A stretch of 64,000 nt of DNA from Cryobacterium luteum (lineage in GTDB: Bacteria > Actinomycetota > Actinomycetes > Actinomycetales > Microbacteriaceae), in the NCBI RefSeq assembly GCF_900110125.1, contig NZ_FOCN01000005.1, forward strand, positions 1 through 64,000, read 5' to 3'. Below are positions 9,319 through 25,061 of the stretch, piece by piece (positions within the stretch are counted from its first letter, which is position 1; the number at the start of each line of letters is the position of its first letter). Under the pieces are notes generated by a model. It made no database searches and had not been told where the DNA came from. It saw only the letters and a list, made by a program, of their open reading frames with translations. The position numbers and the translations under genes were made by a program.

Positions 9319-9573
9319 TCAGCCGATCTGTTCGGCCAGCGCGACAATGATGCCCGCGGGGCCACGGAGGTAAAAGACCCGGAAGCTGGTCTCGTACTGC
9401 GCCACTTCGCTCGGAGCACCACCCGGGAACGAACGAGCCATACTCGAGGCCGCTATGCGTTGAGCCTCCTCGTGCGATCCACCCTGGGTAACCAAACCGG
9501 CGTATTCGATGCAGCTGCGGTCCAACCACGACGGAAACTCGCTAGTGAGGATTCGCCGAAGGGTGACAGTCAT
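9319..9573 (-). pseudogene. N-terminal fragment of a GNAT acetyltransferase
   Basis: Residues 1-50 (TVTLRRILTSEFPSWLDRS, EYAGLVTQGGSHEEAQRIA) match the helical opening of GNAT N-acetyltransferases. The acetyl-CoA-binding core is missing: the frame stops after 84 residues and no continuation was found in the other frames nearby. It is best read as a decayed gene. Confidence 0.6.
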
Positions 9574-9708
9574 CTCTCAATTCTTCCAAACAAGAATCGG
9601 CATCAGCGCCAGCCGAAGATTGCCCGAATAGCGTTCCCCCCTACAAGCGCCCCGCGCCACGGCGGCCGAAGGGAGAGAGGTGCCCGATAGCGTGGTGCGG
9701 CCTCGCGC

Positions 9709-9714
9709 TAAAGT
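9709..9714 (+). promoter_or_regulatory. -10 box for leaderless start at 9721
   Basis: TAAAGT, 6 nt before the ATG. No Shine-Dalgarno at a usable distance, so the transcript is probably leaderless. Confidence 0.5.
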
Positions 9715-9720
9715 GCAGGA

Positions 9721-10200
9721 ATGGGGAATCGTATTTCAATGTGGGTGGGGCCGGTCATCGTGGGTGTGTATGCGTCGGTGATGGTATTGACGATTGCCGT
9801 GTGGGATCCAGAAGCCGCTGTCCCGGGGCTCCGGTATCAGCAGATCGTTGCGGGACTTGGTGACGCGGGAGTGGACGTCGTTGGTTCCGTGATTGGCTTG
9901 ATTGTGTGGGGTTCCGTTGGCCTCGTGCTGGCCCTGGTCCTGAGCATCCTCGGACTTACTGGGCGCGTCGGACGCGTTCCCGTAATTCTGGGGCATCTTT
10001 TGCTGATTGCCGGCGGGGCCCCGGCCTACTTCTTGGGCTCGTTTTCGCTTGGTATAGACGTCGCGGACACGTTCGCCGTGTCGGGTGGCGTCCATGTACC
10101 CACAGGCGCCACCCTTTACACCGTGAGCGGGGTCGCTTTACTCATCCTCGCCGTTGTCGGTATCCGCAGGGCAGCGAATCGCCAGCCGGCGCTGGTGTGA
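9721..10200 (+). CDS. four-helix membrane protein of unknown function
   Basis: A 159-aa protein with four hydrophobic helices at about residues 7-28, 53-80, 86-109 and 129-147. A polar extracytoplasmic loop (GIDVADTFAVSGGVHVPTGA) precedes the last helix. The start is supported by TAAAGT at leaderless spacing. No family motif is recognised. The downstream hydrolase starts 124 nt later, so co-transcription is possible. Confidence 0.65.
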   Translation: MGNRISMWVGPVIVGVYASVMVLTIAVWDPEAAVPGLRYQQIVAGLGDAGVDVVGSVIGLIVWGSVGLVLALVLSILGLTGRVGRVPVILGHLLLIAGGAPAYFLGSFSLGIDVADTFAVSGGVHVPTGATLYTVSGVALLILAVVGIRRAANRQPALV

Positions 10201-10323
10201 GTCGGGTCTGCACGGAGCTGGCAGCATCCCGAAGCTGCACTAGTGTTCTGCCGTCTCGTCCGCACTGGCAGAAGGGCAACGGAACACGTTCTCCGCAAAT
10301 GTCGGGCTCGACGCGGTGAGAAC

Positions 10324-11199
10324 GTGAAGCCCCGCGACCAGAGGATGAAGCCTGTCAACTCGATCGACAGCGTGATCCAAGGGCCTTACGGCCCCATACC
10401 CGTTCGGCGCTATTCGCCGCCTCTTGGCATGAGTCCACTCGGATCCGCGCCAATCGTGTGGATTCATGGAGGTGGATTCTTCAAGGGCAACCTCGACCAG
10501 CCCGAGTCTCATGACGTCGCTCGATCGCTGGCCGCGGCGGGATTCCAGGTCGTTACCGTTGACTACCGGCTCGCGACTCTCGCAAGGCTTCGACGGTCTT
10601 CGAGTGGTTTTGGCAGGAGCCCGGCGGTCCACTATCCGGTCCCGGTCGACGATGTCGTTGCAGTGGTGCGGGCGGTTCAGCGCGAGGCTCCCAACGGGGT
10701 GATTCTGGGCGGTGCAAGCGCCGGAGCGTGTCTATCGGCCGGCGCAGTGCTTCGCATGGCGGACGACGGGGCGGCACCTCTCGCAGGCGTCTTCTTCGCC
10801 TACGGACTGTTCCACGCCGCCCTCCCGAAACGGGCGCGCACTCTGCGCCGTCGCCTTCGTGGCAAACGACGTTTTGTCCACACGCCGACCCTTCTCAACC
10901 TGACGAATCTCCACTACGCGGGCACACGGAGCGCAATGTTGGAAGCGCACGCATTTCCCGGGGGCCACCCCCTGCACGACTACCCTCCGACGCTCATGAT
11001 CGACGCGGACCGCGACTCGATGCGCGCATCGGGCGGTCAGTTCGCCCGAGAGCTTTCAGCTGCCGGGATCGCATCGAGCTACCACGTACTTCCCGAGACC
11101 TTCCACGCTTTCCTCAACCGTCCGAACGAGCCCGTCTTCGCGGACGGGTTACAACTCATAATCGACTGGGCCCACGACATTCAGTCGAAACAGACGTGA
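10324..11199 (+). CDS. alpha/beta hydrolase, hormone-sensitive lipase type (esterase family IV)
   Basis: The 291-aa protein carries the oxyanion motif HGGG (WIHGGGFFKGN) and the nucleophile motif GASAG (GGASAGACLSAG). A likely acid is Asp in IDADRD and the catalytic histidine is in ETFHAFLN. The spacing fits a soluble carboxylesterase acting on short-chain esters. The start is GTG 10324 with GGTGAG upstream; ATG 10345 is the alternative. It is followed by the second copy of the palindrome-ended repeat. The natural substrate is not evident. Confidence 0.82.
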   Translation: MKPRDQRMKPVNSIDSVIQGPYGPIPVRRYSPPLGMSPLGSAPIVWIHGGGFFKGNLDQPESHDVARSLAAAGFQVVTVDYRLATLARLRRSSSGFGRSPAVHYPVPVDDVVAVVRAVQREAPNGVILGGASAGACLSAGAVLRMADDGAAPLAGVFFAYGLFHAALPKRARTLRRRLRGKRRFVHTPTLLNLTNLHYAGTRSAMLEAHAFPGGHPLHDYPPTLMIDADRDSMRASGGQFARELSAAGIASSYHVLPETFHAFLNRPNEPVFADGLQLIIDWAHDIQSKQT

Positions 11200-11228
11200 G
11201 GCGCAGCAACCGGATTCAAGCGGCCCTC

Positions 11229-11323
11229 GTCCCGTAGGGGGTTCCCCTTACGAAACGGAGCAACTGTCGGGGATCGACTGTTGGCCTTTTTGGGTGTCCC
11301 GGTCGGCGTCCGGCTTACGGGAC
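11229..11323. repeat. 95-bp palindrome-ended repeat, copy 2
   Basis: Begins GTCCCGTAGGGGGTTCCCC and ends CCGGCTTACGGGAC, so the last 10 bases at each end pair. It shares both end blocks and part of the interior (GGGGATCGACTGTT versus GCCGATCGACCGTT) with copy 1 at 103-188, with a 9-bp longer interior. It lies directly after the hydrolase and could also act as its terminator. Confidence 0.55.
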
Positions 11324-11523: not shown

Positions 11524-12951
11524 ATGGTGGAGAAGCATCAGGAGATCATTTCTCGCGAGCTCGGAGCAACTAACCCCTCGCCGTGCAACTGCGCGATCAT
11601 CGTTGGCGGGGCGGCTGTAGGCAACGTTGATCTTGAACGCATCAAATATGGGCATGAGACCTTGGATAGTGTCTCGATTTCCTACGCATCGTTCGCGCTG
11701 AAAAGGACCCTTTTGACTGAAGACCGTGTGGTCTCCTTGCTGGCTACCGCTCGAGCGCACTTCGCGGTGCCCGAAGCAACGACAGTCGCGCAAGTGGCTG
11801 GAGTGCTTCAGGGCTTCGGTGCGACAGGGCTGTCCGTGGCGCGTTTCATCGACGATGTTGCGGATGAATTCGTCGACCGCTCCTTGGTCGTAGCGGTGTT
11901 CACGCTGGCAGATGCGTCGCTGCTGCTATCGAGGGCCACCAGCGAAGAGCTCGAGATATTCGTCGACGATCCAGAAGAGACGTTCGACCCGTTCGAGTAC
12001 GGCAGCGACCAGGTGGAGTGGACCACCTTCTCCCACGAGATGAGCACGCTTCGACGGGCTATCATCCTGCTGGAGTGTATGCGCGAGGACCCGGACCGAG
12101 TCGGCAACTTCCGCGTTTACGGCGGCGCGCAGTGGCTTCGTGAAAGCCTCTGGGCTGCCACGGGTATTGTGCCGCGCGATCCTGGATCTCCCGACGCGCA
12201 GTGCACTCTCTTCGGCGAAGCATTCATTCTCAATCCGCCGTTCCTGTTGCGGGATCACTTATCGGGATTCGTATATCTCGCGTCGATGTCCAAGGCGGAG
12301 GACGAGCACGATCAACAGGTCATCGTGAATCTCGTAAATGATGCGGTAGTCCCCCGTTCGCACCCGCCATTCGCCAGAGCCTCCGACGAGTTGGATCGCC
12401 TTGGGAGGCCGCGGATCGTCTGCCAAGAGGTCGATCGCTGCTTGAACTCTCCGTCGAACCTGCGGATCGAACTTTCGCAGTTGCCGTTCAGCGGCCGGTG
12501 CGATCTTCACCGAGTAAGTCATGCGAGGCCGAGGTCCGCTTTCACCTGTTCCCAAGGAGTCGGTTCGTTTTTCGTGCGACGCATCTCTTCACGGGATTCC
12601 TCAGCGGCACGAATATCGGCCATGTCATCGGCCAATTCAATGAGACGCTCCAAATCGTCGACGTCGATAACAGCCGCAACTCGCCGCCCGCGGCGAGACA
12701 AGAAGACCGGCTCGTGCTCGGTGCGAGCCCGGTCGATGATCGATGCGAGCTGGTCGCGTGCATCAGAGACGCTGACGGGGACCGTGGTTGACATGTTTCA
12801 AGCGTACATTCCACTCACCAGATGTACAAGGGATCCTCAAATGTACAAATGGTCGCTCGCGCAGGGTTCCCGTTGCCGGACCAGCCAGTCCGTAACGAGA
12901 CAACGGTTGAGGGCCCTGCTGCGAAGAACTCGGGCAAGATCCCGGGCATGA
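11524..12951 (+). CDS. hypothetical protein, 3' part probably replaced (open frame antisense to the TA module)
   Basis: Roughly the first 245 residues (to about 12258) read like real protein with balanced composition, for example EELEIFVDDPEETFDPFEYGSDQVEW and VYGGAQWLRESLWAATG. I recognise no family. From 12259 on, the same frame runs antisense through relE and yefM and into the IS30 remnant, and its composition becomes Arg- and Ser-rich, typical of a shadow frame. The likely reading is a gene that lost its 3' end when the toxin-antitoxin module arrived, leaving a readthrough frame of 475 codons. The start is uncertain because no clear ribosome-binding site precedes 11524. Confidence 0.45.
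   Translation: MVEKHQEIISRELGATNPSPCNCAIIVGGAAVGNVDLERIKYGHETLDSVSISYASFALKRTLLTEDRVVSLLATARAHFAVPEATTVAQVAGVLQGFGATGLSVARFIDDVADEFVDRSLVVAVFTLADASLLLSRATSEELEIFVDDPEETFDPFEYGSDQVEWTTFSHEMSTLRRAIILLECMREDPDRVGNFRVYGGAQWLRESLWAATGIVPRDPGSPDAQCTLFGEAFILNPPFLLRDHLSGFVYLASMSKAEDEHDQQVIVNLVNDAVVPRSHPPFARASDELDRLGRPRIVCQEVDRCLNSPSNLRIELSQLPFSGRCDLHRVSHARPRSAFTCSQGVGSFFVRRISSRDSSAARISAMSSANSMRRSKSSTSITAATRRPRRDKKTGSCSVRARSMIDASWSRASETLTGTVVDMFQAYIPLTRCTRDPQMYKWSLAQGSRCRTSQSVTRQRLRALLRRTRARSRA
12259..12522 (-). CDS. RelE/ParE-family toxin
   Basis: The 87-aa protein has the RelE fold pattern: YSVKIAPAAERQLRKFDPQVRRRVQAAI, LVGGSGEWRVRTGDYRIIYEI and a C-terminal VLRLGHRREIYE. These are the basic and aromatic positions expected of a ribosome-dependent mRNA endonuclease. 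It is second in a two-gene operon: its ATG at 12522 overlaps the stop of the antitoxin (ATGA). The product should cleave translated mRNA when released from the antitoxin. It converges on the truncated plus-strand gene. Confidence 0.88.
   Translation of the reverse strand: MTYSVKIAPAAERQLRKFDPQVRRRVQAAIDLLADDPRPPKAIQLVGGSGEWRVRTGDYRIIYEIHDDLLIVLVLRLGHRREIYESR
12519..12794 (-). CDS. Phd/YefM-family antitoxin
   Basis: A 91-aa protein starting MSTTVPVSVSDARDQLASII, the typical DNA-binding N-terminus of YefM. It continues FLSRRGRRVAAVIDVDDLERL and then an acidic toxin-neutralising C-terminus. It precedes and overlaps relE. Three TGTAC boxes upstream overlap its -10, which fits autorepression by the antitoxin-toxin complex. 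The start ATG 12794 has TACGCT 6 nt upstream, so the mRNA is probably leaderless. Confidence 0.88.
   Translation of the reverse strand: MSTTVPVSVSDARDQLASIIDRARTEHEPVFLSRRGRRVAAVIDVDDLERLIELADDMADIRAAEESREEMRRTKNEPTPWEQVKADLGLA
12801..12848 (-). promoter_or_regulatory. toxin-antitoxin promoter with TGTAC operator boxes
   Basis: On the minus strand, TTGTACAT occurs at 12841-12848 and 12822-12829, and AATGTACG at 12803-12810, spaced 19 bp apart. The -10 TACGCT (12801-12806) overlaps the last box. YefM-type antitoxins bind palindromes with a TGTACA core, so these are probable operators. Confidence 0.65.
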
Positions 12952-16643: not shown

Positions 16644-16755
16644 AACCGGGCGTGGGTGTCCCTGAAAAACACAGAATCGTGTAATCACAACTCGTTACCG
16701 CCTGACGCAAGTGGGCAGCTCCAGAGTCCAAGGCCGTGTCAAATCAGAACATTGA

Positions 16756-16852
16756 GTGAATCAAGTCCTGCCCCTTCGGTGAGGACAAGAAACCCTGGAC
16801 AGACGACTTTTTTGGTGCCCCCGGTAGGAATCGAACCTACGACAATCGGATT
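16756..16852 (-). repeat. distal attachment site (duplicate of tRNA-Arg 3' half)
   Basis: These 97 bp match 24929-25025 with 5 mismatches; the last 53 bp are identical. The segment 16813-16852 equals the tRNA-Arg sequence from the base after the anticodon to the encoded CCA. The remaining 57 bp match the sequence downstream of the tRNA. Identity stops exactly in the anticodon loop, a classic crossover place for tyrosine integrases. Confidence 0.9.
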
Positions 16853-16991
16853 GCGGCGGACCCATTTTGGCCGAGCGAATCTTATTGCGAAATCTAGACT
16901 AATCTCGTCCGATATCGATCTGATCAGGAGTTTCCTGTGATATCTGCCGCAATTCTATCGCATTACCTCGGCCCATCTCGGCTGGTCTCGA

Positions 16992-17011
16992 CGCAATAAA
17001 CGTTGAATAAA
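16992..17011 (+). repeat. arm-like integrase repeat, left copy
   Basis: The 20-bp sequence AATAAACGTTGAATAAACGT, itself a tandem of AATAAACGT words, recurs exactly at 24906-24925. Its place just inside both ends of the element fits arm-type binding sites of the integrase. Confidence 0.65.
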
Positions 17012-17210
17012 CGTGCGCGCATCAAGTCCCGATGTTTGGCCCCTGTTAAACATACGCCTGAGTCTCGGGCTGCACACCTGGTGTGCTGACCGGCTGTGAC
17101 TATCCCTGCGCTTCCGCACAACGGTCGCGACCGCGCTTGACCGATCTGGGCAGGCGACTAGGGAGATGGCGAAATTTGCCCATATCCAGGTGTGGCAAGC
17201 CAACAGCCAG

Positions 17211-18440
17211 TTACCCGGCGGACGGTCGGTGAATCCGTTCGTCTACCGCGTCCGCAGGAGCTTGGAAAGACATCGCAACGTGCTGCTTGGCGACGCGGGC
17301 AACGCTCCGAGCATCATCGATTGTCAGCCTGTTCGTGGGCACGCGCCCAAAGACCTCCTGCATCGCAAGCTGCACGACCAGCGACTCGACGGGCACACGA
17401 GGCTTTACCCGATGAGTCCTAGCCTGGTTATCCATCTCCGCGTCGACGCGAAACCGTGCACTGTTGCGGTGCGCATGAGTCACGACTGTTCTTATGAGTC
17501 GCTCGAACTGCTGCTGCCGCTCTTCGCGCCGAATCATGGCCGTCGTGGCGCGAACGGCCGCCGCGACGTCGCGGCCGGTCAGCAGGTCGACCCGGCGCAT
17601 CCTCTCTGCAACGATCTCGACGGCCCGGGCGTACACGACGTCATCCACCGACACCGGCGGTAAACCAATGCGCGCCCGGGACGATACATAGGCATCGGCG
17701 AACTCGCGCATGCGTGCGTCATTCTTCAGCATGTGCTCGGTCAGCGACTCGGCGAACACGGTGAACTGCCGCAAGTGCTCGGGCCGCGATGGGTCATTGA
17801 AATACGCATCGGCTTCACGCTCATCGGCCCGGCGCTCAGCCGCGGTCGCAACGTGAATACGCTTCGGGGGGAGGCCGGCCCGACTCAGGATGCGCTTCAG
17901 CCGTCTCGCCGCCGCGTTGACCTCCAGCTCGGACTGGTAAACCTCCGGGTCGCTGCGCCGGGTGCGCTGCAACTCGGCACGGCGCTCCTTGTTGCGCTCG
18001 GCCCACTGCCGGGTGATCTGCTTCGTGCGCTCAGGGTCCGCATCCCGCCTGGCCGCAGCCCGGGCGTTCACCTCGTCGCGGTGGGACTCGTAATAGCGGC
18101 TGTAGTACTCGCGCACCTTCTCGCGATTCTTCGTCACCCACCGCTGCTGATACTCACGCTTGCGATCGAGGTGCTCCTCTCGCCAGCGTTTCGCCCACTC
18201 CCTCCCCCGCGCCCGCACCTCCGCTTCGCGATGCCGGCGAGCCGCAGCCCGACGCATCGAGTCACGATTGAGCTCCCGGGCCCGGTCGAGATGCTCCGAC
18301 CGCCAGCGACGATTCATCTCGCGGATCCGGTCACGGTTCGCCGCCACATACTGCCGCCGCTTCTCGGCCTCTTCATCAAGAGACGGATGCTCCGCCAGCC
18401 CTTTATGCAGCACGGCGCCTTCCTCAGATGGGTCGTTCAT
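17211..18440 (-). CDS. highly charged repetitive protein of unknown function
   Basis: A 409-aa protein. Residues about 28-165 consist of imperfect repeats of roughly 18-22 residues rich in Arg, Glu, Trp and Tyr (RRWRSEHLDRARELNR, KRWREEHLDRKREYQQRW, RDEVNARAAARRDADPERTK). These are predicted to be helical. The remainder is a less repetitive helical domain (HLRQFTVFAESLTEHMLKNDARMREF, RVDLLTGRDVAAAVRATTAMIRREER). Similar repeat stretches occur in phage and plasmid proteins. DNA or RNA binding is plausible from the charge but unproven. It is the most distal cargo gene, facing outward. Confidence 0.65.
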   Translation of the reverse strand: MNDPSEEGAVLHKGLAEHPSLDEEAEKRRQYVAANRDRIREMNRRWRSEHLDRARELNRDSMRRAAARRHREAEVRARGREWAKRWREEHLDRKREYQQRWVTKNREKVREYYSRYYESHRDEVNARAAARRDADPERTKQITRQWAERNKERRAELQRTRRSDPEVYQSELEVNAAARRLKRILSRAGLPPKRIHVATAAERRADEREADAYFNDPSRPEHLRQFTVFAESLTEHMLKNDARMREFADAYVSSRARIGLPPVSVDDVVYARAVEIVAERMRRVDLLTGRDVAAAVRATTAMIRREERQQQFERLIRTVVTHAHRNSARFRVDAEMDNQARTHRVKPRVPVESLVVQLAMQEVFGRVPTNRLTIDDARSVARVAKQHVAMSFQAPADAVDERIHRPSAG

Positions 18441-18448
18441 GATCGCGG

Positions 18449-18715
18449 CTACTCGGCAGGCTGCGGGGCCAGCTCGATGACCAGCGCGAGAAGCTCAGAG
18501 CGATGCACCGTCGGATTCGTGATCACACGCCCGACCACGACGCGGAGCCGCTCGGCATCCTCGTCTCCGATCCCGGCGACGGGCTCCACGCAGTACGCGA
18601 TGTCATTCTGCAGGTTGTGGCCGTCATCGTCGACAGCGACCTCCGGATAGTAGAACAGTGCAGCCAGGGCGGTGCGGCTGAGCAGGTCGTCGAACTGATC
18701 CTGCGGGATCGTCAT
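18449..18715 (-). CDS. small acidic hypothetical protein
   Basis: The 88-aa product starts MTIPQDQFDDLLSRTALAAL and continues YYPEVAVDDDGHNLQNDIAYCVEPV. An AGGAGG ribosome-binding site lies 7 nt before ATG 18715. It is 8 nt upstream of the repetitive-protein gene, so the two are probably co-transcribed. It could be a small partner or regulator of its neighbour; no domain is recognised. Confidence 0.65.
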   Translation of the reverse strand: MTIPQDQFDDLLSRTALAALFYYPEVAVDDDGHNLQNDIAYCVEPVAGIGDEDAERLRVVVGRVITNPTVHRSELLALVIELAPQPAE

Positions 18716-18791
18716 AGTGAAGCCTCCTGTGCGCGGACGTGTGTGAGCCAATCATGCCGCTACCAGGAGGTACGCCGGCCCAGACGTGGCG

Positions 18792-19178
18792 TCAGCCGAG
18801 TCTCGAGACGAGCACTGGCTCGTCGAAGTGCTCAACGCCGTCAGTGAGCAGCGTCCGCGTCATGCGACGGCGCGCCACGTCTTCACGAACGCGTACTGCG
18901 ATCAGCTTCAGCAGGCTGATGGGCCCGATCAAAACAAACTTGAGTGTGTTCCACAGAAACAGCAACACGAGCAGGTTCAGCCAGCCCGCACCACCGGCTT
19001 CAATCGGGGCTCGGCAATAGACAGCAGCGATCGCATACGGAACGGCGAGCAGCATCGGTGGCACCCCCCACTTCAGCCCACGCCGCGTACTGATGGCGTC
19101 GATCACGATGGCGGTCGGCATGAACCGGCGCAAGAAGAAGTAGCTGCGGGCCGTGGCGGCCAGAATGAACTCGAACAT
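18792..19178 (-). CDS. membrane-associated protein of actinobacterial mobile elements
   Basis: The 128-aa product begins MFEFILAATARSYFFLRRFM and has two clear hydrophobic segments (LKWGVPPMLLAVPYAIAAVY and WLNLLVLLFLWNTLKFVLIG), then a basic tail. This arrangement (RSYFFLRRFMPT, RRGLKWGVP, WN-LKF) is one I know from small membrane proteins carried by actinobacterial integrative and conjugative elements, often mislabelled as permeases. The ATG 19178 is preferred over 19241 because similarity begins there. It supports a mobile origin for the region. Confidence 0.65.
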   Translation of the reverse strand: MFEFILAATARSYFFLRRFMPTAIVIDAISTRRGLKWGVPPMLLAVPYAIAAVYCRAPIEAGGAGWLNLLVLLFLWNTLKFVLIGPISLLKLIAVRVREDVARRRMTRTLLTDGVEHFDEPVLVSRLG

Positions 19179-19396
19179 GGTGCGGCCTTTCAGATGTTCG
19201 GCAACAAGAACCTGAAAGGACTGAAAGTCACGCCATCGCAACGGGTCACGCCGCGTAATAGAGGTTGCCTAACAACACTGTAGAACCTGATATCTAAAGC
19301 TGAAAGTACCGTGCGGGGCAATTACAAGCGGATGCTACCCGCGCACTTCCCCGCACCGGCGCCCACCTATCCGCACCAAATTCATTCTCGACGGTC

Positions 19397-19825
19397 TTAG
19401 TCGTCGATGACGGCGCGGCCTTCCTTTGTCAGGGCGGCGAGTCCATCCCGCATCGACTTCACCTGAACCGGCGAGTGCCCAATCCAATCCACGAGTTCAC
19501 CGACCACCTCAACCGGGTCAGGGGTGCGGTAGGAGTGAGTCGGATTGCCGCGGAACTTCTTATCCGTCACATTGGGGTCATCCTCGAGGGCACCTCTCGG
19601 TTCGACGATGTAAATGTGTCCCCGACCGTCGCCGACTGCCAATTCGGCACCCCAGGTTGCAGCGTCCAGGGTTGCCGTCATATAGACATAGTTCATTCGC
19701 CTGCCGGCTTCGAAATTCGAGTCGCGACCGGGAACTAACAGGTCGCCCACCGCCAAGTCGGCTTTCGTCCCATGCAACAGGACCCCGGGTTCGTAGACAT
19801 CGAACGGCTTCGGCTCACGGGTCAT
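19397..19825 (-). CDS. arr: rifampin ADP-ribosyltransferase Arr
   Basis: The 142-aa enzyme transfers ADP-ribose from NAD to a hydroxyl of rifamycins, inactivating them. The family signature is clear: HGTKADLAVGDLL with His18, MNYVYMTATL with the NAD-site Tyr, and EDDPNVTDKKFRGNPT with the conserved Asp. It ends within the usual length of about 140 residues. ATG 19825 has GGAGG 5 nt upstream, so the four-residue longer form is less likely. It stands alone between the small membrane gene and a decayed VOC gene, and is cargo on the tRNA-Arg element. Confidence 0.92.
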   Translation of the reverse strand: MTREPKPFDVYEPGVLLHGTKADLAVGDLLVPGRDSNFEAGRRMNYVYMTATLDAATWGAELAVGDGRGHIYIVEPRGALEDDPNVTDKKFRGNPTHSYRTPDPVEVVGELVDWIGHSPVQVKSMRDGLAALTKEGRAVIDD

Positions 19826-19852
19826 GAGTGCCTCCACAACGGTTGGTAGGGA

Positions 19853-19858
19853 ATCCTA
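19853..19858 (-). promoter_or_regulatory. possible -10 of arr
   Basis: TAGGAT on the minus strand, 27 nt before the ATG. No good -35 was seen, so confidence is low. Confidence 0.3.
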
Positions 19859-19985
19859 ACTCGGGCCGCGCTCGCACCAGAATGTGAGTAGCACGGCCCT
19901 GCCAGAGGGCTGAGCCAGACCAGAACCCGGAGGCCTGAGCACGCCTCTCCATCGTTGCCCCGCACCGAGCTACAGATCGCCCTGC

Positions 19986-20140
19986 TCAGGTGGCCGTGTC
20001 CACGACGCAAAACTGGTTCCCCTCCGGATCTGCCAGGATCACGTAGTGAGCATCTGCTGGTCGTTTGTCCCAGTCGATCTCCGTAGTTTCCAGCGCCAGC
20101 AATCGCGCTATCCCTGCCGCATGCTCCAGGACCTTGCGTC
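19986..20140 (-). pseudogene. C-terminal remnant of a VOC/glyoxalase-family gene
   Basis: The minus strand encodes IARLLALETTEIDWD, then AHYVILADPEGNQFCVVDT and a stop at 19986. This is the typical last 45 residues of VOC-superfamily proteins. An in-frame stop lies about 10 codons upstream and the N-terminal half is absent. Decayed passenger gene. Confidence 0.75.
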
Positions 20141-20718
20141 ACCATCTTTGGTTGTGTCGGATGATGACGATGTTCGTGACCCTAGCACCACCGGCTCAAT
20201 TTTGGAACTCGTGCTTCTCCTGCTTGTCGGAGTCGCACGAGAGATCAGCTCGGCGACGATCCGCGGCGCACGACGAGTGCGACCGGCTCCGGATGCCCAC
20301 GACACGACCGCTGCCAGTCTGATTGCGCGCCCGGTGCGAGGCTCGTCGCTGGTCCGCCCATCGGGGTACGGTTGGCGTGCGGTCCGATTCGTGATGAGGA
20401 CTTCGTGTAGTTCATCGTCGACGAAGTCGCGCGTCGCCGCGATGCCCAGGCATCGCTATACCTTCACGGTTAATCTCGTTGATATCGCCAAGCTTTGGCT
20501 CTTGCGAAGGGCGCAAATGCCCTGCTCCCCTGTCGCAGTTGACGTACCTGAGCGCGACTGGTCTAAGGGCGCTGCGAGCGCGGTTGGCGTAGAGCACGAG
20601 GATGCCCAAGCAACGTGGCTACTCTCATTGGCGGCCGCGCCTGCACCCCCGAAAGTAGTTAGCCGCGCAACCGATAGAATGCGTCGCAGATATACGGCGG
20701 ACTCAGAGAGGGCAGATC
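20141..20718. other. 578-bp stretch without a supported gene
   Basis: A long plus-strand frame crosses it but has no family motif and overlaps the VOC remnant. It probably holds more decayed sequence plus the promoter and leader of the 929-aa gene. Confidence 0.4.
20675..20680 (+). promoter_or_regulatory. possible -10 of the 929-aa gene
   Basis: TAGAAT lies 38 nt before ATG 20719. The -35 region is weak. A GAGAGGG ribosome-binding site precedes the start. Confidence 0.35.
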
Positions 20719-23508
20719 ATGGCACGCAGATCCAGTTCTAACCGTTGGTCGCGCCCCGCAACGGGCAAGCAGATCGCTGCGCTGAAGTCAGGCGGCAGCT
20801 ATGACGGCAAGTACTACTCAATGGGCAGGGCGAGCCAATCAATCGGGGGTTCGGCATTCAACTCGTCGGCCGGTCCGCCTCGGTCGAGCGGTAACGCGTC
20901 GAGCGGCTCGGCGTACTCTCCCCTAGCGGTCTCGGGCTTTGGGCCATCCGGACTTCTGTCGCGACTGATTATCGGGAACGTCGAACTCGGCTCATTGCTG
21001 CAACCCGCCCTTGGCGCCAGCCCGCAAAGCCGGCTTGCATCATCCGAAGCCGGGCCGATGAGGATCCTGTCGGAATTGCTCGGCGTGCCCGATGACCTCG
21101 ATTCATTGGTGCAGGTCGCACTCGGCGGGGACGATTCAGACGGGTCAAGCGTGCCTGCTGAAGATGGCCCTGTCGAGGCTGTTTCGTTTACAGTTTTTTC
21201 CGACGATTCCAATCCCGCCGAGCCGCGCATCGTCGTGGAAGCTAACGTGGTTCGAAACTTGGCCTTTAATGGAAAGCCATCCCTCGAGGTTCGGTTCATG
21301 GGCGCAGGTGGACCGAGCGAGAACCAAGCTTTGGACCGTGCTCTCCAGCCTAGAGTGCGACCAGTTCTGGGGTATCGGCCGACCTGGACGTCAGTGCTCG
21401 TCCGAACGCCGGCCGAACTGGCCGAGCAGATGCGAGCCCATTGGGGTGCCGCTACTAAGGAACTCGAAGAAGGTGTCGACCCTCGACTCGCGACGTTTCT
21501 TGCACGGTCCGGCGGGATGGAGACCGCGTTGGAGGTGCTCAACTCGGGTCAGTCAACTGCCTCCATGTACGTGCACCTTCAAGGCATCCTGGACCCGGAC
21601 GGCCCGATTCAGTTTCACGGCCTTGGCCTCGATGCCGCCACCTTCGCCGAACAGATTCGCATGGCGCACGAGGGGGACGAACAGGCGCTCACTTGGCTTG
21701 AAGTGATCCAGAGATTGCAGGTCTTGACTTCGCTGGCGGAGGTCACCGGAATCAGTCTTGCGGCGGAGGCTGACTTCCGGTTGGCGTGTTGGCACAAGCA
21801 AGGTACCGACCTCATCGGCGCCGTAACGATGGATGCCGACGATTCCGGGTTTGACTTCACTTCGATCAGAGCGCTCTTGACGATGAGGGCAGAAAACGAA
21901 GCAAAATATGCGGAGCTGCGCGCGTCTCTCGCAGAGGGAATTGAGTCGAACCCGGAGACTTCGGCCGACGATCAGACTCAACTTGACCGGTTGGACGCCC
22001 TTTTCCCTCCAGCGTCTTCCTCGGAGTACGGGCTACTCGAAGACTGGTTCTTCGAAGAGACGCGAATCTACCTCCAAGCCAGACTGCGTCAATCTCTGCC
22101 TGGACAGTTCGCCGTAGCCCTCATGCCCTCTTCGTCGGACAGATCAAGCTACGACTCAGCCGCAGACGAAGTACGCAGATTGGTCACCACCTCCTCAACC
22201 GACCTGAATGACTACTCGCCAGTACCGGCTTCGAGTGCGGACTCCTCGTTTGGATCGTTCCACAGACCGTCGCGGTTGTCTCAAAGCCAGCGGATGGTCA
22301 ACCCTCCGGAGCGGATAGTCCAGGCAGTTCGCCGCGCGGTCGCTGAATCGGAGGCGGCTGGCGACGAAGACCTAGGGACGCTCATCATCTCCCAAGAGTT
22401 GCTCGGATACGCGCAGTGGAAGCGCGATGAACTACGCGGCAGCAAACAAATGGAGGAGCTGAAAGAGCGGTATAGTGCTGCTACTCAGCGCTCCAAGGCT
22501 GTGCGGCAGCGCGCTCAGGCAGCGAAAGAGTGCGGCGAGGAGGTGCGTAGACACGCCGGATTGATGCCCAACGTCGAGCGGGTCGTCCAGAATTACACCG
22601 ATGCTTTGGCGCGTACGGCGAACTCAATATCCATCGACGAGCCACTGTGGAACTCCGCACAGGAGGCAGCGAGCGCCCGAATAGAGGAAGCGAAGGCGCG
22701 GGAATTCGCCGCTGGTGAATGGCTGGCTGCGGCCGAAGAGCGCGAAAAGCGGGTGGAGTCAGAAATGGCGGTGGTCGCAACGATAGGTGTCATTGAGAAA
22801 CTGCGTGCAGAGCATGGCGCGGCGGTCACAGAGCAGGCGGACGCCAGGGCAGAACGCCAGGGTGCTCAGCGGGATCAGCAGGACGGGCAGGACCATCGTG
22901 CACGGATTTCCGCAGCGCGAGCGAATTTTGATGATCAGATTCGGCCGGTCCGCGAAGAGAACCTGAAGCGTCTCCGGGCGGAGGCTGAGCGTCGTCAAGA
23001 GGCGATGGCCAGGCAGCAGGAGGAGCGACGGCAGAAGCAGGCCGTCGAGCAAGAACGTAGAGAAGCCGCAAATAAACTCCAGGAGCAAACCAACCAGCGG
23101 CAACAAGAGCGAGCTCGCAATGCCAAGAACGCGCTTGCTCCTGAACTTGAGCGCTTCCTTGCGCTACCGGTCGCTACGTCATTCTGGCGACGTAAGACTC
23201 TCAAAGTGACCCGAGAATCGCTAGAGCAAGCCATCCTGAAGTCTCAGACCGAGATCGTAGCTCCTCTGTCTCCGCCGGGCACCATCTCAAAAACGTGGCC
23301 GAGCATGCTTTCTCGCACTGAGCGCTACTTGGGGACAGTGGAAAAGCTTGCCGACTACGGTGTCTTCGTTTCGCTCCCCGCTGGGGCAGATGGCCTGCTG
23401 CGCGGATCCGAAGTGGGAAACTCCTTATCGCTGGGGCAACTTGTGGTCGTCGAGATCGTCGACATGCCCTACGGAAAGCCCATTGCACTGAAACGCATCT
23501 CTCGGTAG
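20719..23508 (+). CDS. large coiled-coil protein with C-terminal S1 RNA-binding domain, function unknown
   Basis: 929 residues without signal peptide or membrane segment. Residues about 12-46 (PATGKQIAALKSGGSYDGKYYSMGR split over two halves) resemble the short KQI..LK...A..I motif found at the ends of some DNA-acting proteins. Residues 60-560 are a globular region matching nothing I recognise; no Walker, HD, HNH, PD-(D/E)XK or TIR motif was seen. Residues about 570-815 are a Glu/Arg/Gln-rich coiled coil. Residues 866-929 are an S1 OB-fold: YLGTVEKLADYGVFVSLPAG, DGLLRGSE, GQLVVVEIVD. GAGAGGG precedes the ATG. It is the largest cargo gene of the element. An RNA-sensing or translation-linked role, possibly defence, is inference. 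Confidence 0.8.
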   Translation: MARRSSSNRWSRPATGKQIAALKSGGSYDGKYYSMGRASQSIGGSAFNSSAGPPRSSGNASSGSAYSPLAVSGFGPSGLLSRLIIGNVELGSLLQPALGASPQSRLASSEAGPMRILSELLGVPDDLDSLVQVALGGDDSDGSSVPAEDGPVEAVSFTVFSDDSNPAEPRIVVEANVVRNLAFNGKPSLEVRFMGAGGPSENQALDRALQPRVRPVLGYRPTWTSVLVRTPAELAEQMRAHWGAATKELEEGVDPRLATFLARSGGMETALEVLNSGQSTASMYVHLQGILDPDGPIQFHGLGLDAATFAEQIRMAHEGDEQALTWLEVIQRLQVLTSLAEVTGISLAAEADFRLACWHKQGTDLIGAVTMDADDSGFDFTSIRALLTMRAENEAKYAELRASLAEGIESNPETSADDQTQLDRLDALFPPASSSEYGLLEDWFFEETRIYLQARLRQSLPGQFAVALMPSSSDRSSYDSAADEVRRLVTTSSTDLNDYSPVPASSADSSFGSFHRPSRLSQSQRMVNPPERIVQAVRRAVAESEAAGDEDLGTLIISQELLGYAQWKRDELRGSKQMEELKERYSAATQRSKAVRQRAQAAKECGEEVRRHAGLMPNVERVVQNYTDALARTANSISIDEPLWNSAQEAASARIEEAKAREFAAGEWLAAAEEREKRVESEMAVVATIGVIEKLRAEHGAAVTEQADARAERQGAQRDQQDGQDHRARISAARANFDDQIRPVREENLKRLRAEAERRQEAMARQQEERRQKQAVEQERREAANKLQEQTNQRQQERARNAKNALAPELERFLALPVATSFWRRKTLKVTRESLEQAILKSQTEIVAPLSPPGTISKTWPSMLSRTERYLGTVEKLADYGVFVSLPAGADGLLRGSEVGNSLSLGQLVVVEIVDMPYGKPIALKRISR

Positions 23509-23611
23509 GCAGGGTCGAACGAGGCGACCGTTCGGTCCGATGCTCCGGACGTCAACAAGTGCTGCATTACCAGGCCCGCACCGGACCATCGACTCGATCA
23601 GAGGCCTCAAG

Positions 23612-23936
23612 CTAAAACCCCCGACTCTTTCGCAGTCGGATGGCGTTGGTGACGTTAGTGGCGTTCGAGACTCCGTGCTCATGGCCGAGGCGCTCGGTCA
23701 TTGCCTCGTTCAGCGCGGTCTCGGGGAAGCATTTAGTGAACTGGCCCAGCAGCCCATTCTGGCCGTCCAGGGTCATCCCCTGCTCAATGCTACGAGCACC
23801 CATTCCATCGCCGCCGCGTCACGGGTGTGCAAAGATTTCGTCTTCTTCCTCACCGCGTCAAATGTCGTCATCACGGCACATTTCCCGCCAGACCACGTCC
23901 AGCGCGTCAGGCCGGAAACACCGTTAAAGGGACAAT
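23612..23936 (-). mobile_element. IS256 (Mutator)-family remnant
   Basis: The minus strand at 23803-23612 encodes LDGQNGLLGQFTKCFPETALNEAMTERLGHEH in pieces matching the N-terminal part of Mutator-type transposases. It then breaks off; a further start at 23871 lies in another frame. The GGAAACACCGTTAAAGGGAC sequence at about 23915-23934 looks like the element's outer end. Most of the transposase, including the catalytic residues, is missing. Confidence 0.65.
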
Positions 23937-23989
23937 CCTCCCGGAGGATAAATCCTTCGACACTGGCGTTCAGAGGACCAATGGATTCT

Positions 23990-24961
23990 TTACTGAGGCG
24001 GAGCGAGCCGCTGCAGCACCGTCGCCGGCTCGGATTTTACGGCGCGATCAGGCTCTGCGTAGTGCGCCTTTGTCTTCGACGTCGACGTGTGTCCGAGCAC
24101 GTCGGCCGCAGCCTGCAAACCCAGTTCGTTGGCGAGCAGCGTCGCCCCCGTTCGACGGAAGGCATGGGGCGTGATCCCCATGCCTTCAAGGCCAGCGTTC
24201 CGGAGAATGTCGCGGAATGTGCGCCGGACGTTGTGCGGCGCGAGTGGCTTGCCGTTCCGCGTAAAGAACAGCAGGTGTTCACCGTCCTCCCCCTCGATCA
24301 GTGTCAGACGTCGTCGAATTACCTCTGCCGCGAATTGCGGCACGGCGACGACCCGGTTCGACTCATGGGTTTTGGGATGCGCCTGGCGAATCACGCCGAC
24401 GCCACTCTGTATGACGAGCGTTCCGCGGATATGCACCCACGGCGGGTCGGCGGTCATATCTATGTCGCACTTTCGAAGCGCAAGCGTCTCGCCGATGCGC
24501 GTCGCCGTGCCGAGCATCACCTCGATCAGGTCCCGTACCTGCCCGTCGGGTTTGGGCCCCATCCTGCCCTCCGCTGTGCGCCAGTCGCGGGCGGCGAGTC
24601 GGATTGCGGCTACCTGATCCGGCGTGAGCGCCTTCGGGGTGTGCTGGGGCTTCTTCATGCGCGAGGTTTCCTTCACGGGATTGCGCGCGATGACTCCCCG
24701 CCGCACGGCAAACCCCAGCACCATGCTGAGGATCGTGCGGGAGTGCTTGTTTTTGGCGAGCTCGCTTGTCGTGAGTACGGGCTCCAAACCGAGCCCCGAG
24801 AGATTTGTAGCATCCATAACCCGTAGGTGCCCAAGGTCACACCAGGTGAATCGAACTGGCTCGCGTACCTTCTCGCCGAGCGCCCACAAAAGGCGGGCGC
24901 CGCGGAATAAACGTTGAATAAACGTTGCGTGAATCAAGTCTTGCCCCTTTAGTAAGGACAA
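23990..24961 (-). CDS. tyrosine-type site-specific integrase, N-terminus probably shortened
   Basis: All catalytic residues are present in order: Arg155 (GTATRIGETLAL), Lys197 (HPKTHESNR), His266 and Arg269 (HAFRRTGAT), His291 (LGHTS) and Tyr301 (KAHYAEP). Recognisable core-binding sequence begins only around residue 43. Full-length relatives have about 60-100 more N-terminal residues, including the arm-binding domain. The open frame starts inside the att repeat (24961), so residues 1-30 may be translated att sequence. ATG 24817 is an alternative that would leave only part of the core-binding domain. It should catalyse insertion and excision at tRNA-Arg if still functional. Confidence 0.85.
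   Translation of the reverse strand: MSLLKGQDLIHATFIQRLFRGARLLWALGEKVREPVRFTWCDLGHLRVMDATNLSGLGLEPVLTTSELAKNKHSRTILSMVLGFAVRRGVIARNPVKETSRMKKPQHTPKALTPDQVAAIRLAARDWRTAEGRMGPKPDGQVRDLIEVMLGTATRIGETLALRKCDIDMTADPPWVHIRGTLVIQSGVGVIRQAHPKTHESNRVVAVPQFAAEVIRRRLTLIEGEDGEHLLFFTRNGKPLAPHNVRRTFRDILRNAGLEGMGITPHAFRRTGATLLANELGLQAAADVLGHTSTSKTKAHYAEPDRAVKSEPATVLQRLAPPQ
24906..24925 (+). repeat. arm-like integrase repeat, right copy
   Basis: Identical 20-bp copy of 16992-17011, lying 4 bp from the att repeat and inside the first codons of the integrase frame. Confidence 0.65.
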
Positions 24962-25025
24962 GAAACCCTGGTCAGACGACTTTTTTGGTGCCCCCGGTAG
25001 GAATCGAACCTACGACAATCGGATT
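24929..25025 (-). repeat. proximal attachment site in tRNA-Arg
   Basis: 97-bp partner of 16756-16852. It spans the tRNA 3' half (24986-25025) and 57 bp downstream. The 5 mismatches all lie downstream of the tRNA, in a region able to form a small hairpin. Confidence 0.9.
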
Positions 25026-25061
25026 AGAAGGCCGGTGCTCTATCCACTGAGCTACGGGGGC
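24986..25061 (-). tRNA. tRNA-Arg (anticodon UCU)
   Basis: Acceptor GCCCCCG pairs with CGGGGGC, the D arm is GCTC-AGTGGATA-GAGC, the anticodon loop is CTTCTAA, and the T arm has GGTTCGATTCC. CCA is encoded. In the anticodon stem, 28-42 to 30-40 pair, but 27-43 is C-A and 31-39 is C-U. The gene carries the integrative element in its 3' half and is transcribed away from isopropylmalate-dehydrogenase-like gene toward the integrase. Confidence 0.93.

What the first reader, a model, noticed from the sequence alone, without database searches (positions are those of the whole stretch)
20719..23508. 929-aa S1-domain/coiled-coil protein as main cargo of a tRNA-Arg element
The sequence shows a large protein with a short KQI-type N-terminal motif, about 500 residues matching nothing I recognise, a 240-residue coiled coil and a C-terminal S1 OB-fold (DYGVFV, DGLL, GQ-V-V). 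S1 domains bind RNA in ribosomal and RNA-decay proteins. Having one at the tip of a coiled coil on an integrative element, with no relaxase or replication gene, suggests an RNA-sensing or translation-targeting cargo, possibly anti-phage. That last step is inference.
Basis: partly seen in the sequence, partly recalled or inferred. Interest (0 to 1): 0.8.

Follow-up and report, generated by a model that had tools for sequence, protein, structure and literature searches.

The report
Kinase-system adaptor with RNA-binding S1 tip
A rare bacterial protein on a small mobile DNA element joins pieces otherwise seen in protein-kinase signalling systems to an RNA-binding-type tip; it may be a single-gene sensor or immunity factor, and the family libraries searched here do not name it.

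Summary
The 929-aa ORF (20719-23508, +) is real: four other genomes, from three named actinobacterial genera, encode it full length (41-57% identical). It lies in an 8.2-kb element bounded by a 105-nt direct repeat that includes 40 nt of the tRNA-Arg 3' half. The C-terminal S1 domain is confirmed (family profile E 2.8e-12 to ribosomal S1). Much of the "500 unknown residues" is recognisable. The N-terminal ~200 residues also occur as a separate ~175-aa protein directly upstream of a PIN-like kinase, vWA and PP2C triad (3 of 3 loci). Residues ~215-365 match a domain C-terminal of Ser/Thr kinases (5 of 5 loci; hhalign 99.8%, E 6e-29). Neither module matched Pfam, and the full-length gene has no conserved neighbour in the stretches compared. 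My reading: a kinase-less, probably non-enzymatic adaptor linking kinase-system docking modules to an RNA-binding S1 tip, carried as sporadic mobile cargo. Defence is plausible but untested. It is not a TerY-P system: vWA, PP2C and kinase are missing. The one structure model was poor (pLDDT 51.6).

The parts
16748..16852 (.). left att repeat (contains 40 nt of the tRNA-Arg 3' half)
   Evidence: 105-nt direct repeat, 93% identical to 24921-25025, spacing 8173
24921..25025 (.). right att repeat, overlapping tRNA-Arg and the start of the integrase gene
24986..25061 (-). tRNA-Arg (tct), integration site
   Evidence: ARAGORN, Rfam RF00005; in four relatives read, the DNA to its right aligns and the element to its left is missing apart from an integrase piece in one
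23990..24961 (-). tyrosine recombinase (integrase), 323 aa
   Evidence: PF00589 E 9.5e-21
20719..23508 (+). 929-aa protein P0001, the finding
20719..20853 (+). residues 1-45: KQI / YDGKYYSMGRAS module
   Evidence: HMM of this region hits short proteins in L007, L028, L029 (same locus as L006) at 2e-25 to 3e-25
21046..21318 (+). residues 110-200: helix plus beta-strand module, travels with the KQI module
   Evidence: HMM hits the same three loci at 1e-21 to 2e-13
21331..21834 (+). residues 205-372: kinase-associated domain (my name, KAD)
   Evidence: hhalign 99.8%, E 6.1e-29; tblastn from the L018 kinase E 4e-22, 36% over 148 residues; HMM 9e-35 to 3e-8 in kinase ORFs
21832..22128 (+). residues 372-470: helical stretch with invariant acidic and Arg residues
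   Evidence: HMM hits only the full-length family among the ORFs held
22291..22473 (+). residues 525-585: DDLGT helical stretch
   Evidence: one weak outside hit (3.6e-4) in an ORF downstream of the KAD kinase in L024; tentative
22372..23160 (+). residues 552-814: long helices, coiled-coil-like
   Evidence: AF2 model, block pLDDT 50-90
23314..23505 (+). residues 866-929: S1 OB-fold domain
19397..19837 (-). Arr, rifampin ADP-ribosyltransferase (co-cargo)
   Evidence: PF12120 E 1.4e-46
18792..19241 (-). small hydrophobic (by eye, probably membrane) protein; a relative sits next to the short KQI gene in L028
   Evidence: tblastn 46% over 104 residues, E 4e-23
17211..18440 (-). 409-aa basic, repeat-rich ORF (by eye), unknown
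   Evidence: no family above cut-off
18449..18751 (-). 100-aa ORF, unknown
   Evidence: no Pfam match; PHROG 2209 of unknown function E 0.011

Best explanation
P0001 is a stand-alone, horizontally carried adaptor protein. Its N-terminal part (KQI plus beta module) and its kinase-associated domain are docking modules shared with actinobacterial Ser/Thr-kinase systems. A long helical rod follows and ends in an S1 domain that binds RNA or single-stranded nucleic acid. I propose that the S1 tip recognises an RNA (phage or stress-altered transcripts, or ribosomal RNA) and that the rod relays this to the docking end, which recruits or releases a protein partner, most likely a host or resident kinase/phosphatase circuit. 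The outcome would be arrest or protection of the cell. Shown: modular make-up, homology of the modules, S1 homology, mobile and sporadic carriage, no kinase in the protein and no conserved neighbour in the stretches compared. Inferred: adaptor role, RNA as ligand, kinase pathway as partner, defence or stress outcome.
For: KAD homology to the domain C-terminal of kinases: A2 profile E 2.0e-34 to 2.2e-13, each for one genome, hhalign E 6.1e-29, single-sequence tblastn E 4e-22. Of the 5 KAD loci outside the family, 4 match PF00069 and the fifth, L023, aligns with the L018 kinase across the kinase domain. The short KQI protein is directly upstream of PIN-like kinase, vWA and PP2C genes in 3 of 3 loci. 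S1: profile E 2.8e-12. None of the 218 positions invariant in the five proteins is His or Cys, which argues against HEPN, HNH or zinc catalysis and fits a non-enzymatic adaptor. No shared neighbour gene of note among the five full-length loci (window 8-40 kb, ~10 kb each side elsewhere). Mobile carriage: att repeats, 1 of 57 genus genomes, lower third-position GC than most ORFs picked beside it.
Against: No functional data. The full-length gene is not next to a kinase in the loci read. The window's own genome shows no second KAD at E 1e-6, so no KAD kinase was found to pair with; the other four hosts were not searched for one. Of five hosts, one (L003's) was seen to have a TerY-P-like kinase/vWA/PP2C set, about 64 kb away on what is probably the same contig; only that neighbourhood was read. 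PP2C matches occur in 5 of 5 hosts and also in 7 of 14 control genomes, so they say little. PMC11090510 (passages) reports metal sensing, not RNA, as the hypothesis for TerY-P. Lack of invariant His or Cys does not exclude an enzyme using Asp, Glu or Lys; residues 372-470 hold invariant acidic and Arg residues. S1/OB domains can bind other ligands. Defence genes near homologues are anecdotal. The structure model is poor.
Confidence: 0.38

Rival explanations
1. A self-sufficient single-gene anti-phage (abortive infection) effector: S1 senses phage RNA and the 372-560 region is an undescribed toxic enzyme or membrane/ribosome poison; the kinase-system modules are only oligomerisation parts.
For: Stand-alone mobile gene, sporadic. 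The L004 copy is ~0.3 kb from a PD-T4-3-like GIY-YIG gene, the L005 copy ~5 kb from a DUF4238 gene, the L003 copy ~7 kb from an SF1 helicase (ten chosen neighbours only). The related short KQI gene in L007 lies near a Pycsar-like set.
Against: No significant PADLOC match of the protein itself (the one listed, LmuB, E 0.15, is in the helical region). No known catalytic signature recognised, no invariant His or Cys. No defence gene recognised in the six element ORFs scanned (P0001 and three others also against PADLOC).
Confidence: 0.25
2. A translation or RNA-metabolism factor: S1 docks on the ribosome or on PNPase-type RNA substrates and the protein tunes gene expression under stress or during excision and transfer of the element.
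For: Best S1 relatives among solved structures are ribosomal S1 and PNPase.
Against: A single S1 domain is promiscuous (recalled); no ribosome-linked domain recognised elsewhere; kinase-system modules unexplained; the copies sit in different surroundings, in L008 close to a tRNA-Gln, with no shared element gene found.
Confidence: 0.2
3. A structural or transfer-related protein of the integrative element itself.
For: L003 lies among what read by eye like T4SS/ParB-type genes of a conjugative element.
Against: No such gene recognised among the six ORFs scanned in the window element or by eye around L004, L005, L008.
Confidence: 0.07
4. Ordinary filler: a coiled-coil protein whose apparent modules are low-complexity similarity.
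For: Alanine- and charge-rich helical part; residues ~45-110 are poorly conserved.
Against: The KAD match is found in both directions, spans 148-150 residues at 36% identity and lies outside the helical rod; 218 invariant positions.
Confidence: 0.03

Closest known systems
TerY-P triad (vWA + PP2C + Ser/Thr kinase with C-terminal zinc ribbon or OB-fold), antiphage according to Gao et al. 2020 as cited in PMC11090510 and PMC7699616 (passages read)
   Same: The N-terminal module of P0001 is a separate protein in operons of this make-up (L006, L007, L028); an OB-type domain at a C-terminus occurs in both.
   Different: P0001 has no kinase, phosphatase or vWA domain and none was found beside it; its OB-fold is S1-like on a long rod.
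KAD-kinase operons seen here (MSGPK-type coiled-coil protein, ClpB-like AAA, FHA, Ser/Thr kinase-KAD in L024, L025, L027, and L026 cut by its contig end). Neighbours named by eye, kinases by Pfam or tblastn
   Same: Share the KAD (36% identity over ~150 residues).
   Different: There the KAD follows a kinase domain; in P0001 it follows the KQI/beta modules and precedes a rod and S1.
KKP kinase-kinase-phosphatase toxin-antitoxin and defence module (PMC11341870, abstract and passages read)
   Same: Precedent that mobile-element phospho-switches give phage defence.
   Different: It encodes its kinases and phosphatase; its trigger is a phage protein acting on the phosphatase, not RNA.
CoCoNuTs (PMC11090510, passages read)
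   Same: Coiled coils plus OB-folds, predicted to target RNA, types II and III-A often with TerY-P.
   Different: No McrB GTPase, helicase or HEPN match in P0001.
S1 domains of bS1 and PNPase
   Same: Core G-V, DYG-FV, DGLL, GQ-V-VEI (motif by eye).
   Different: Single C-terminal domain on an otherwise unrelated protein.

Membership tests
TerY-P triad | TerY-like vWA protein in the locus | tested here: not met
   No vWA match among the six element ORFs scanned; no shared neighbours in homologous loci
TerY-P triad | PP2C phosphatase in the locus | tested here: not met
   The window's genome has 4 PP2C_2 matches; the only one on the window's contig (C45) is at 152947-153573, outside the window
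TerY-P triad | Ser/Thr kinase with ZnR or OB C-terminus | tested here: not met
   No kinase match in P0001 or the other five element ORFs scanned
S1 RNA-binding domain (PF00575) | Significant profile match to the S1 core | tested here: met
   Family profile E 2.8e-12 against solved bS1; the single-sequence Pfam score is under the gathering cut-off
S1 RNA-binding domain (PF00575) | Binds RNA | not testable with these tools
   needs a binding assay
KAD-type kinase-associated domain (described here) | Homology over the ~150-residue domain | tested here: met
KAD-type kinase-associated domain (described here) | Follows a kinase domain in the same protein | tested here: not met
   Yes in 5 of 5 outside loci; no in the full-length family: Pfam finds no kinase in P0001 and the family N-termini align with it
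Known anti-phage system (PADLOC 2.0.0) | Significant match of the protein to a model | tested here: not met
   Best hit LmuB E 0.15
Integrative element at a tRNA | Tyrosine integrase next to a tRNA and flanking att repeats | tested here: met
CoCoNuT type IV restriction | McrB-type GTPase with coiled coil | tested here: not met
   No GTPase match in P0001

The most novel reading that the evidence does not exclude
A new class of one-protein immune sensor made by kinase-free recombination of two separate kinase-switch systems: the KQI/beta partner of a PIN-kinase/vWA/PP2C triad and the KAD of an FHA/AAA/kinase operon are placed on one rod with an RNA-reading S1 tip. It would plug into, or jam, the cell's Ser/Thr-phosphorylation network when foreign RNA appears, and would reveal RNA as an input of TerY-P-like switches.
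Probability: 0.2. Interest if true: 0.78.

Novelty: new variant of a known kind. Interest (0 to 1): 0.52.

Why it matters
In the passages read, the input of TerY-P triads is only hypothesised (metal sensing, PMC11090510), and I saw none stated for the FHA/AAA/kinase operons found here. A single protein that carries modules of both without a kinase gives a compact handle: if its S1 end binds a defined RNA and its docking end a defined kinase or phosphoprotein, the signal and partners of two undescribed modules become directly testable. It also adds modules that gave no Pfam match.

Tried and rejected
Family searches of pieces (residues 1-60, 1-208, 205-372, 373-524, 525-587) against Pfam up to E 10 gave no family except ParD_antitoxin at 0.07-0.10, under its cut-off, in a helical stretch; rejected as chance. 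PADLOC LmuB (0.15) and PHROG 28069 (0.053) are weak helical hits; rejected. Phage, plasmid and viral-contig collections gave no relative. AF2 on five sequences gave mean pLDDT 51.6, with the S1 region mostly below 40; no fold search was run on it because matches would mean little. The idea that the gene works with a triad in the same host was checked by a PP2C search: 5 of 5 hosts match, as do 7 of 14 control genomes; only the strongest match, in L003's host, had its neighbourhood read, and there a kinase and a vWA lie beside it. The DDLGT resemblance (3.6e-4) is tentative. GajB-type SF1-helicase hits beside L003 and L004 are generic and not counted as defence; one search took ten chosen genes, not every gene of the loci. 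One search also paired a dehydrogenase-like gene (window and L004), an ABC-transporter-like gene (window and L008) and UvrD-type helicases (L003 and L004), read by eye as generic.

Paper searches for the combination (0 papers each; 47, 63, 74, 87: related papers only) and passages of five papers showed nothing describing this protein; the library holds open-licence papers only and no paper was read whole.
Full report
Observation. The ORF at 20719-23508 (+) encodes 929 aa with an ATG and a purine-rich stretch just upstream. Full-length relatives were found in Nocardioides daeguensis (L003), two Arthrobacter (L004, L005) and Agrococcus jejuensis (L008): 4 full-length and 2 N-terminal-only among 6 confirmed loci (114 stretches matched a seed pattern) in a collection of one genome for each of 84,980 species; the method finds close relatives only. 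Identity to the window protein is 57, 55, 50 and 41%; 218 positions are invariant in the five. The gene is therefore real and conserved.

Element. A 105-nt direct repeat at 16748-16852 and 24921-25025 (93% identical, last 53 nt identical) includes 40 nt of the 3' half of tRNA-Arg 24986-25061. It bounds 8.2 kb holding the integrase (PF00589, E 9.5e-21), P0001, Arr (PF12120, E 1.4e-46) and three ORFs without a Pfam family above cut-off. In the 57 genomes of the genus, all have some match to the DNA from this tRNA rightwards, but near-full-length ones (about 1,180 or more of 1,339 bases) occur in 11, own included. In four relatives fetched (L055-L058) the right side aligns at 83-90%. Left of the tRNA no part of 16853-24540 has a counterpart in the stretches read; L055 has integrase-gene pieces (matching 24541-24749 and 24753 onwards) beside its tRNA, and L055 also matches the window further left, at 9409-11246. 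L056 ends with its contig about 7.3 kb from the tRNA. So this is a variable integration site and the element an insertion. Short fragments of the same tRNA end occur elsewhere in several genus genomes.

Distribution. P0001 itself: 1 of 57 genomes of the genus (the other 56 show only an S1-type match within residues 861-907, in L002 in what reads by eye as PNPase). Family sample: 2 of 150 at E 1e-8, the second (G103) N-terminal only. Order sample with the family profile: 5 of 297 at 1e-10, of which only the window's genome has the full length; G302 matches the N-terminal part, G224, G312 (twice) and G447 the KAD. N-terminal profile in a class sample: 1 of 345. KAD profile in a phylum sample: 2 of 346. 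Genus of the Arthrobacter Edens01 host: 1 of 29. Each search scores a limited number of first-look candidates per genome, so these are lower bounds. No relative in 72,556 plasmid or 50,697 phage records or in two scans of the viral contigs. Third-position GC of the gene is 0.66, against 0.80-0.88 for eight of ten ORFs picked between 25.1 and 37.5 kb (the other two, 0.74 and 0.71, may be wrong-strand picks); it is 0.68 in L008 against 0.81-0.97 for the six ORFs picked upstream of it. It is sporadic and probably acquired.

Anatomy. Separate HMMs of seven stretches, run over 3,329 distinct six-frame ORFs of the loci then held, resolve the protein. Residues 1-45 and 110-200 are found in short proteins of three independent loci outside the family: L007 (Microbacterium lacus), L006 (Flavimobilis; its contig has the same length as that of G302, so L020, L022 and L029 are taken as the same locus) and L028/L016 (G103), E 2e-25 to 2e-13. 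Residues 205-372 are found in kinase ORFs (E 9e-35 to 3e-8). Residues 372-470 and 585-815 are found only in the family. Residues 525-585 have one weak outside hit (3.6e-4, L024, downstream of a KAD kinase). Residues 815-929 find the S1 ends of L002 and L009-L015 (3e-8 to 4e-7). The family profile against solved structures gives ribosomal S1 at 2.8e-12 over several stretches and PNPase at 1.1e-6.

Context of the modules. In L006, L007 and L028 the short KQI gene is directly followed, on the same strand, by a PIN-like kinase with a Cys-rich end (zinc-ribbon-like by eye), a vWA and a PP2C gene (Pfam on L007: PF00069 2.8e-11, PF00092 2.6e-11, PF13672 1.5e-44; PIN_12 9.7e-4 and PIN_4 1.6e-3 are below their cut-offs). 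PMC11090510 (passages) defines TerY-P as vWA, PP2C and kinase with a zinc ribbon, reports a metal-sensing hypothesis, and says that a variant with a kinase-OB-fold was shown to be antiphage by Gao et al. 2020; PMC7159879 (passages) describes actinobacterial kinase/PP2C/vWA sets. The KAD lies C-terminal of a kinase in 5 of 5 outside loci (L018/L024, L019/L027, L021/L025, L023/L026, L044): four match PF00069 at 1.3e-34 to 9.2e-29, and L023 aligns with the L018 kinase across the kinase domain. HRD-KP and DFG motifs are visible by eye (motif names recalled). Beside the kinases in L024-L027 lie ClpB-like AAA, FHA and MSGPK-type coiled-coil genes, named by eye and homologous to each other; L044 is a 3-kb contig and shows little else. 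The comparison of four kinase KADs with five family KADs gives hhalign probability 99.8, E 6.1e-29, 36% identity over 150 columns. These four kinase KADs were first found with the family profile, so searches are not independent of it; goes the other way, from the single L018 kinase to the window, at 4e-22.

What is absent. P0001 has no kinase, and the full-length loci share no neighbour of note in the stretches compared (window 8-40 kb and about 10 kb on each side elsewhere; the generic pairs found are listed under tried and rejected). The window's genome shows no KAD other than P0001 at E 1e-6. No His or Cys is invariant. In L003's host a kinase, vWA and PP2C set lies about 64 kb from the homologue, if the two listings of the 242,046-base contig are the same record in the same direction.

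Mechanism. The parts suggest an adaptor: docking modules from kinase systems at one end, a long helical rod, and a nucleic-acid-binding-type S1 tip. I infer that RNA binding at the tip changes docking at the other end. The partner, the RNA and the outcome are inferred, not shown. Neighbour genes with defence-type matches occur near some relatives (PD-T4-3-like and LEM-3 GIY-YIG at L004; DUF4238 at L005; PycC, E2-like and PycTM near the short KQI gene at L007), but none was recognised in the window's element and I scanned only chosen neighbours, so this is a hint only. PMC11341870 (abstract and passages) shows that a mobile kinase-phosphatase switch can defend against phage; it is a precedent, not evidence for this protein.

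Structure. One AF2 job on five sequences gave pLDDT 51.6 and pTM 0.34; the helical rod is the only long stretch modelled with some confidence. A second job was not accepted.

Verdict. The protein fails membership of TerY-P and has no significant PADLOC match, but shares parts with kinase-switch systems. I rate it a new variant of a known kind, interest 0.52.

Noticed in passing
L007:7190-9144: Pycsar-like set in Microbacterium lacus with an E2-like gene between cyclase and effector: PycC (E 2.7e-25), E2-like (5.4e-17), PycTM (3.3e-14), ending about 0.8 kb upstream of the short KQI/PIN-like kinase/vWA/PP2C operon. The E2-like middle gene looks unusual.
   Followed up: partly
L024, L025, L026, L027: Conserved operon of MSGPK-type coiled-coil protein, ClpB-like AAA, FHA (some with zinc ribbon) and Ser/Thr kinase with KAD, with Thr-containing repeats such as TRREE or TVFE before the kinase that could be FHA ligands; names by eye.
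   Followed up: partly
L045:9529-11672: vWA gene and a kinase with a Cys-containing, beta-rich-looking C-terminal end next to a strong PP2C match in the host of L003, probably on the same contig as the P0001 homologue.
   Followed up: partly
19397-19837: Arr rifampin ADP-ribosyltransferase gene carried in the same att-bounded element (PF12120 E 1.4e-46).
   Followed up: no
18792-19241: Small hydrophobic protein with a relative (46%) beside the short KQI gene in L028: a second gene shared between the window element and a triad locus.
   Followed up: partly
24986-25061: This tRNA-Arg looks like a recurrent integration site: ~40-nt copies of its 3' end occur elsewhere in several genomes of the genus.
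   Followed up: partly
12259-12794: Overlapping pair that reads by eye like a RelE-type toxin and a Phd-type antitoxin, left of the element, beside a transposase-like ORF (rve, PF00665, 12822-13487).
   Followed up: no
21331-21834: Kinase-associated domain that gave no Pfam match up to E 10; could be described as a new domain family.
   Followed up: yes
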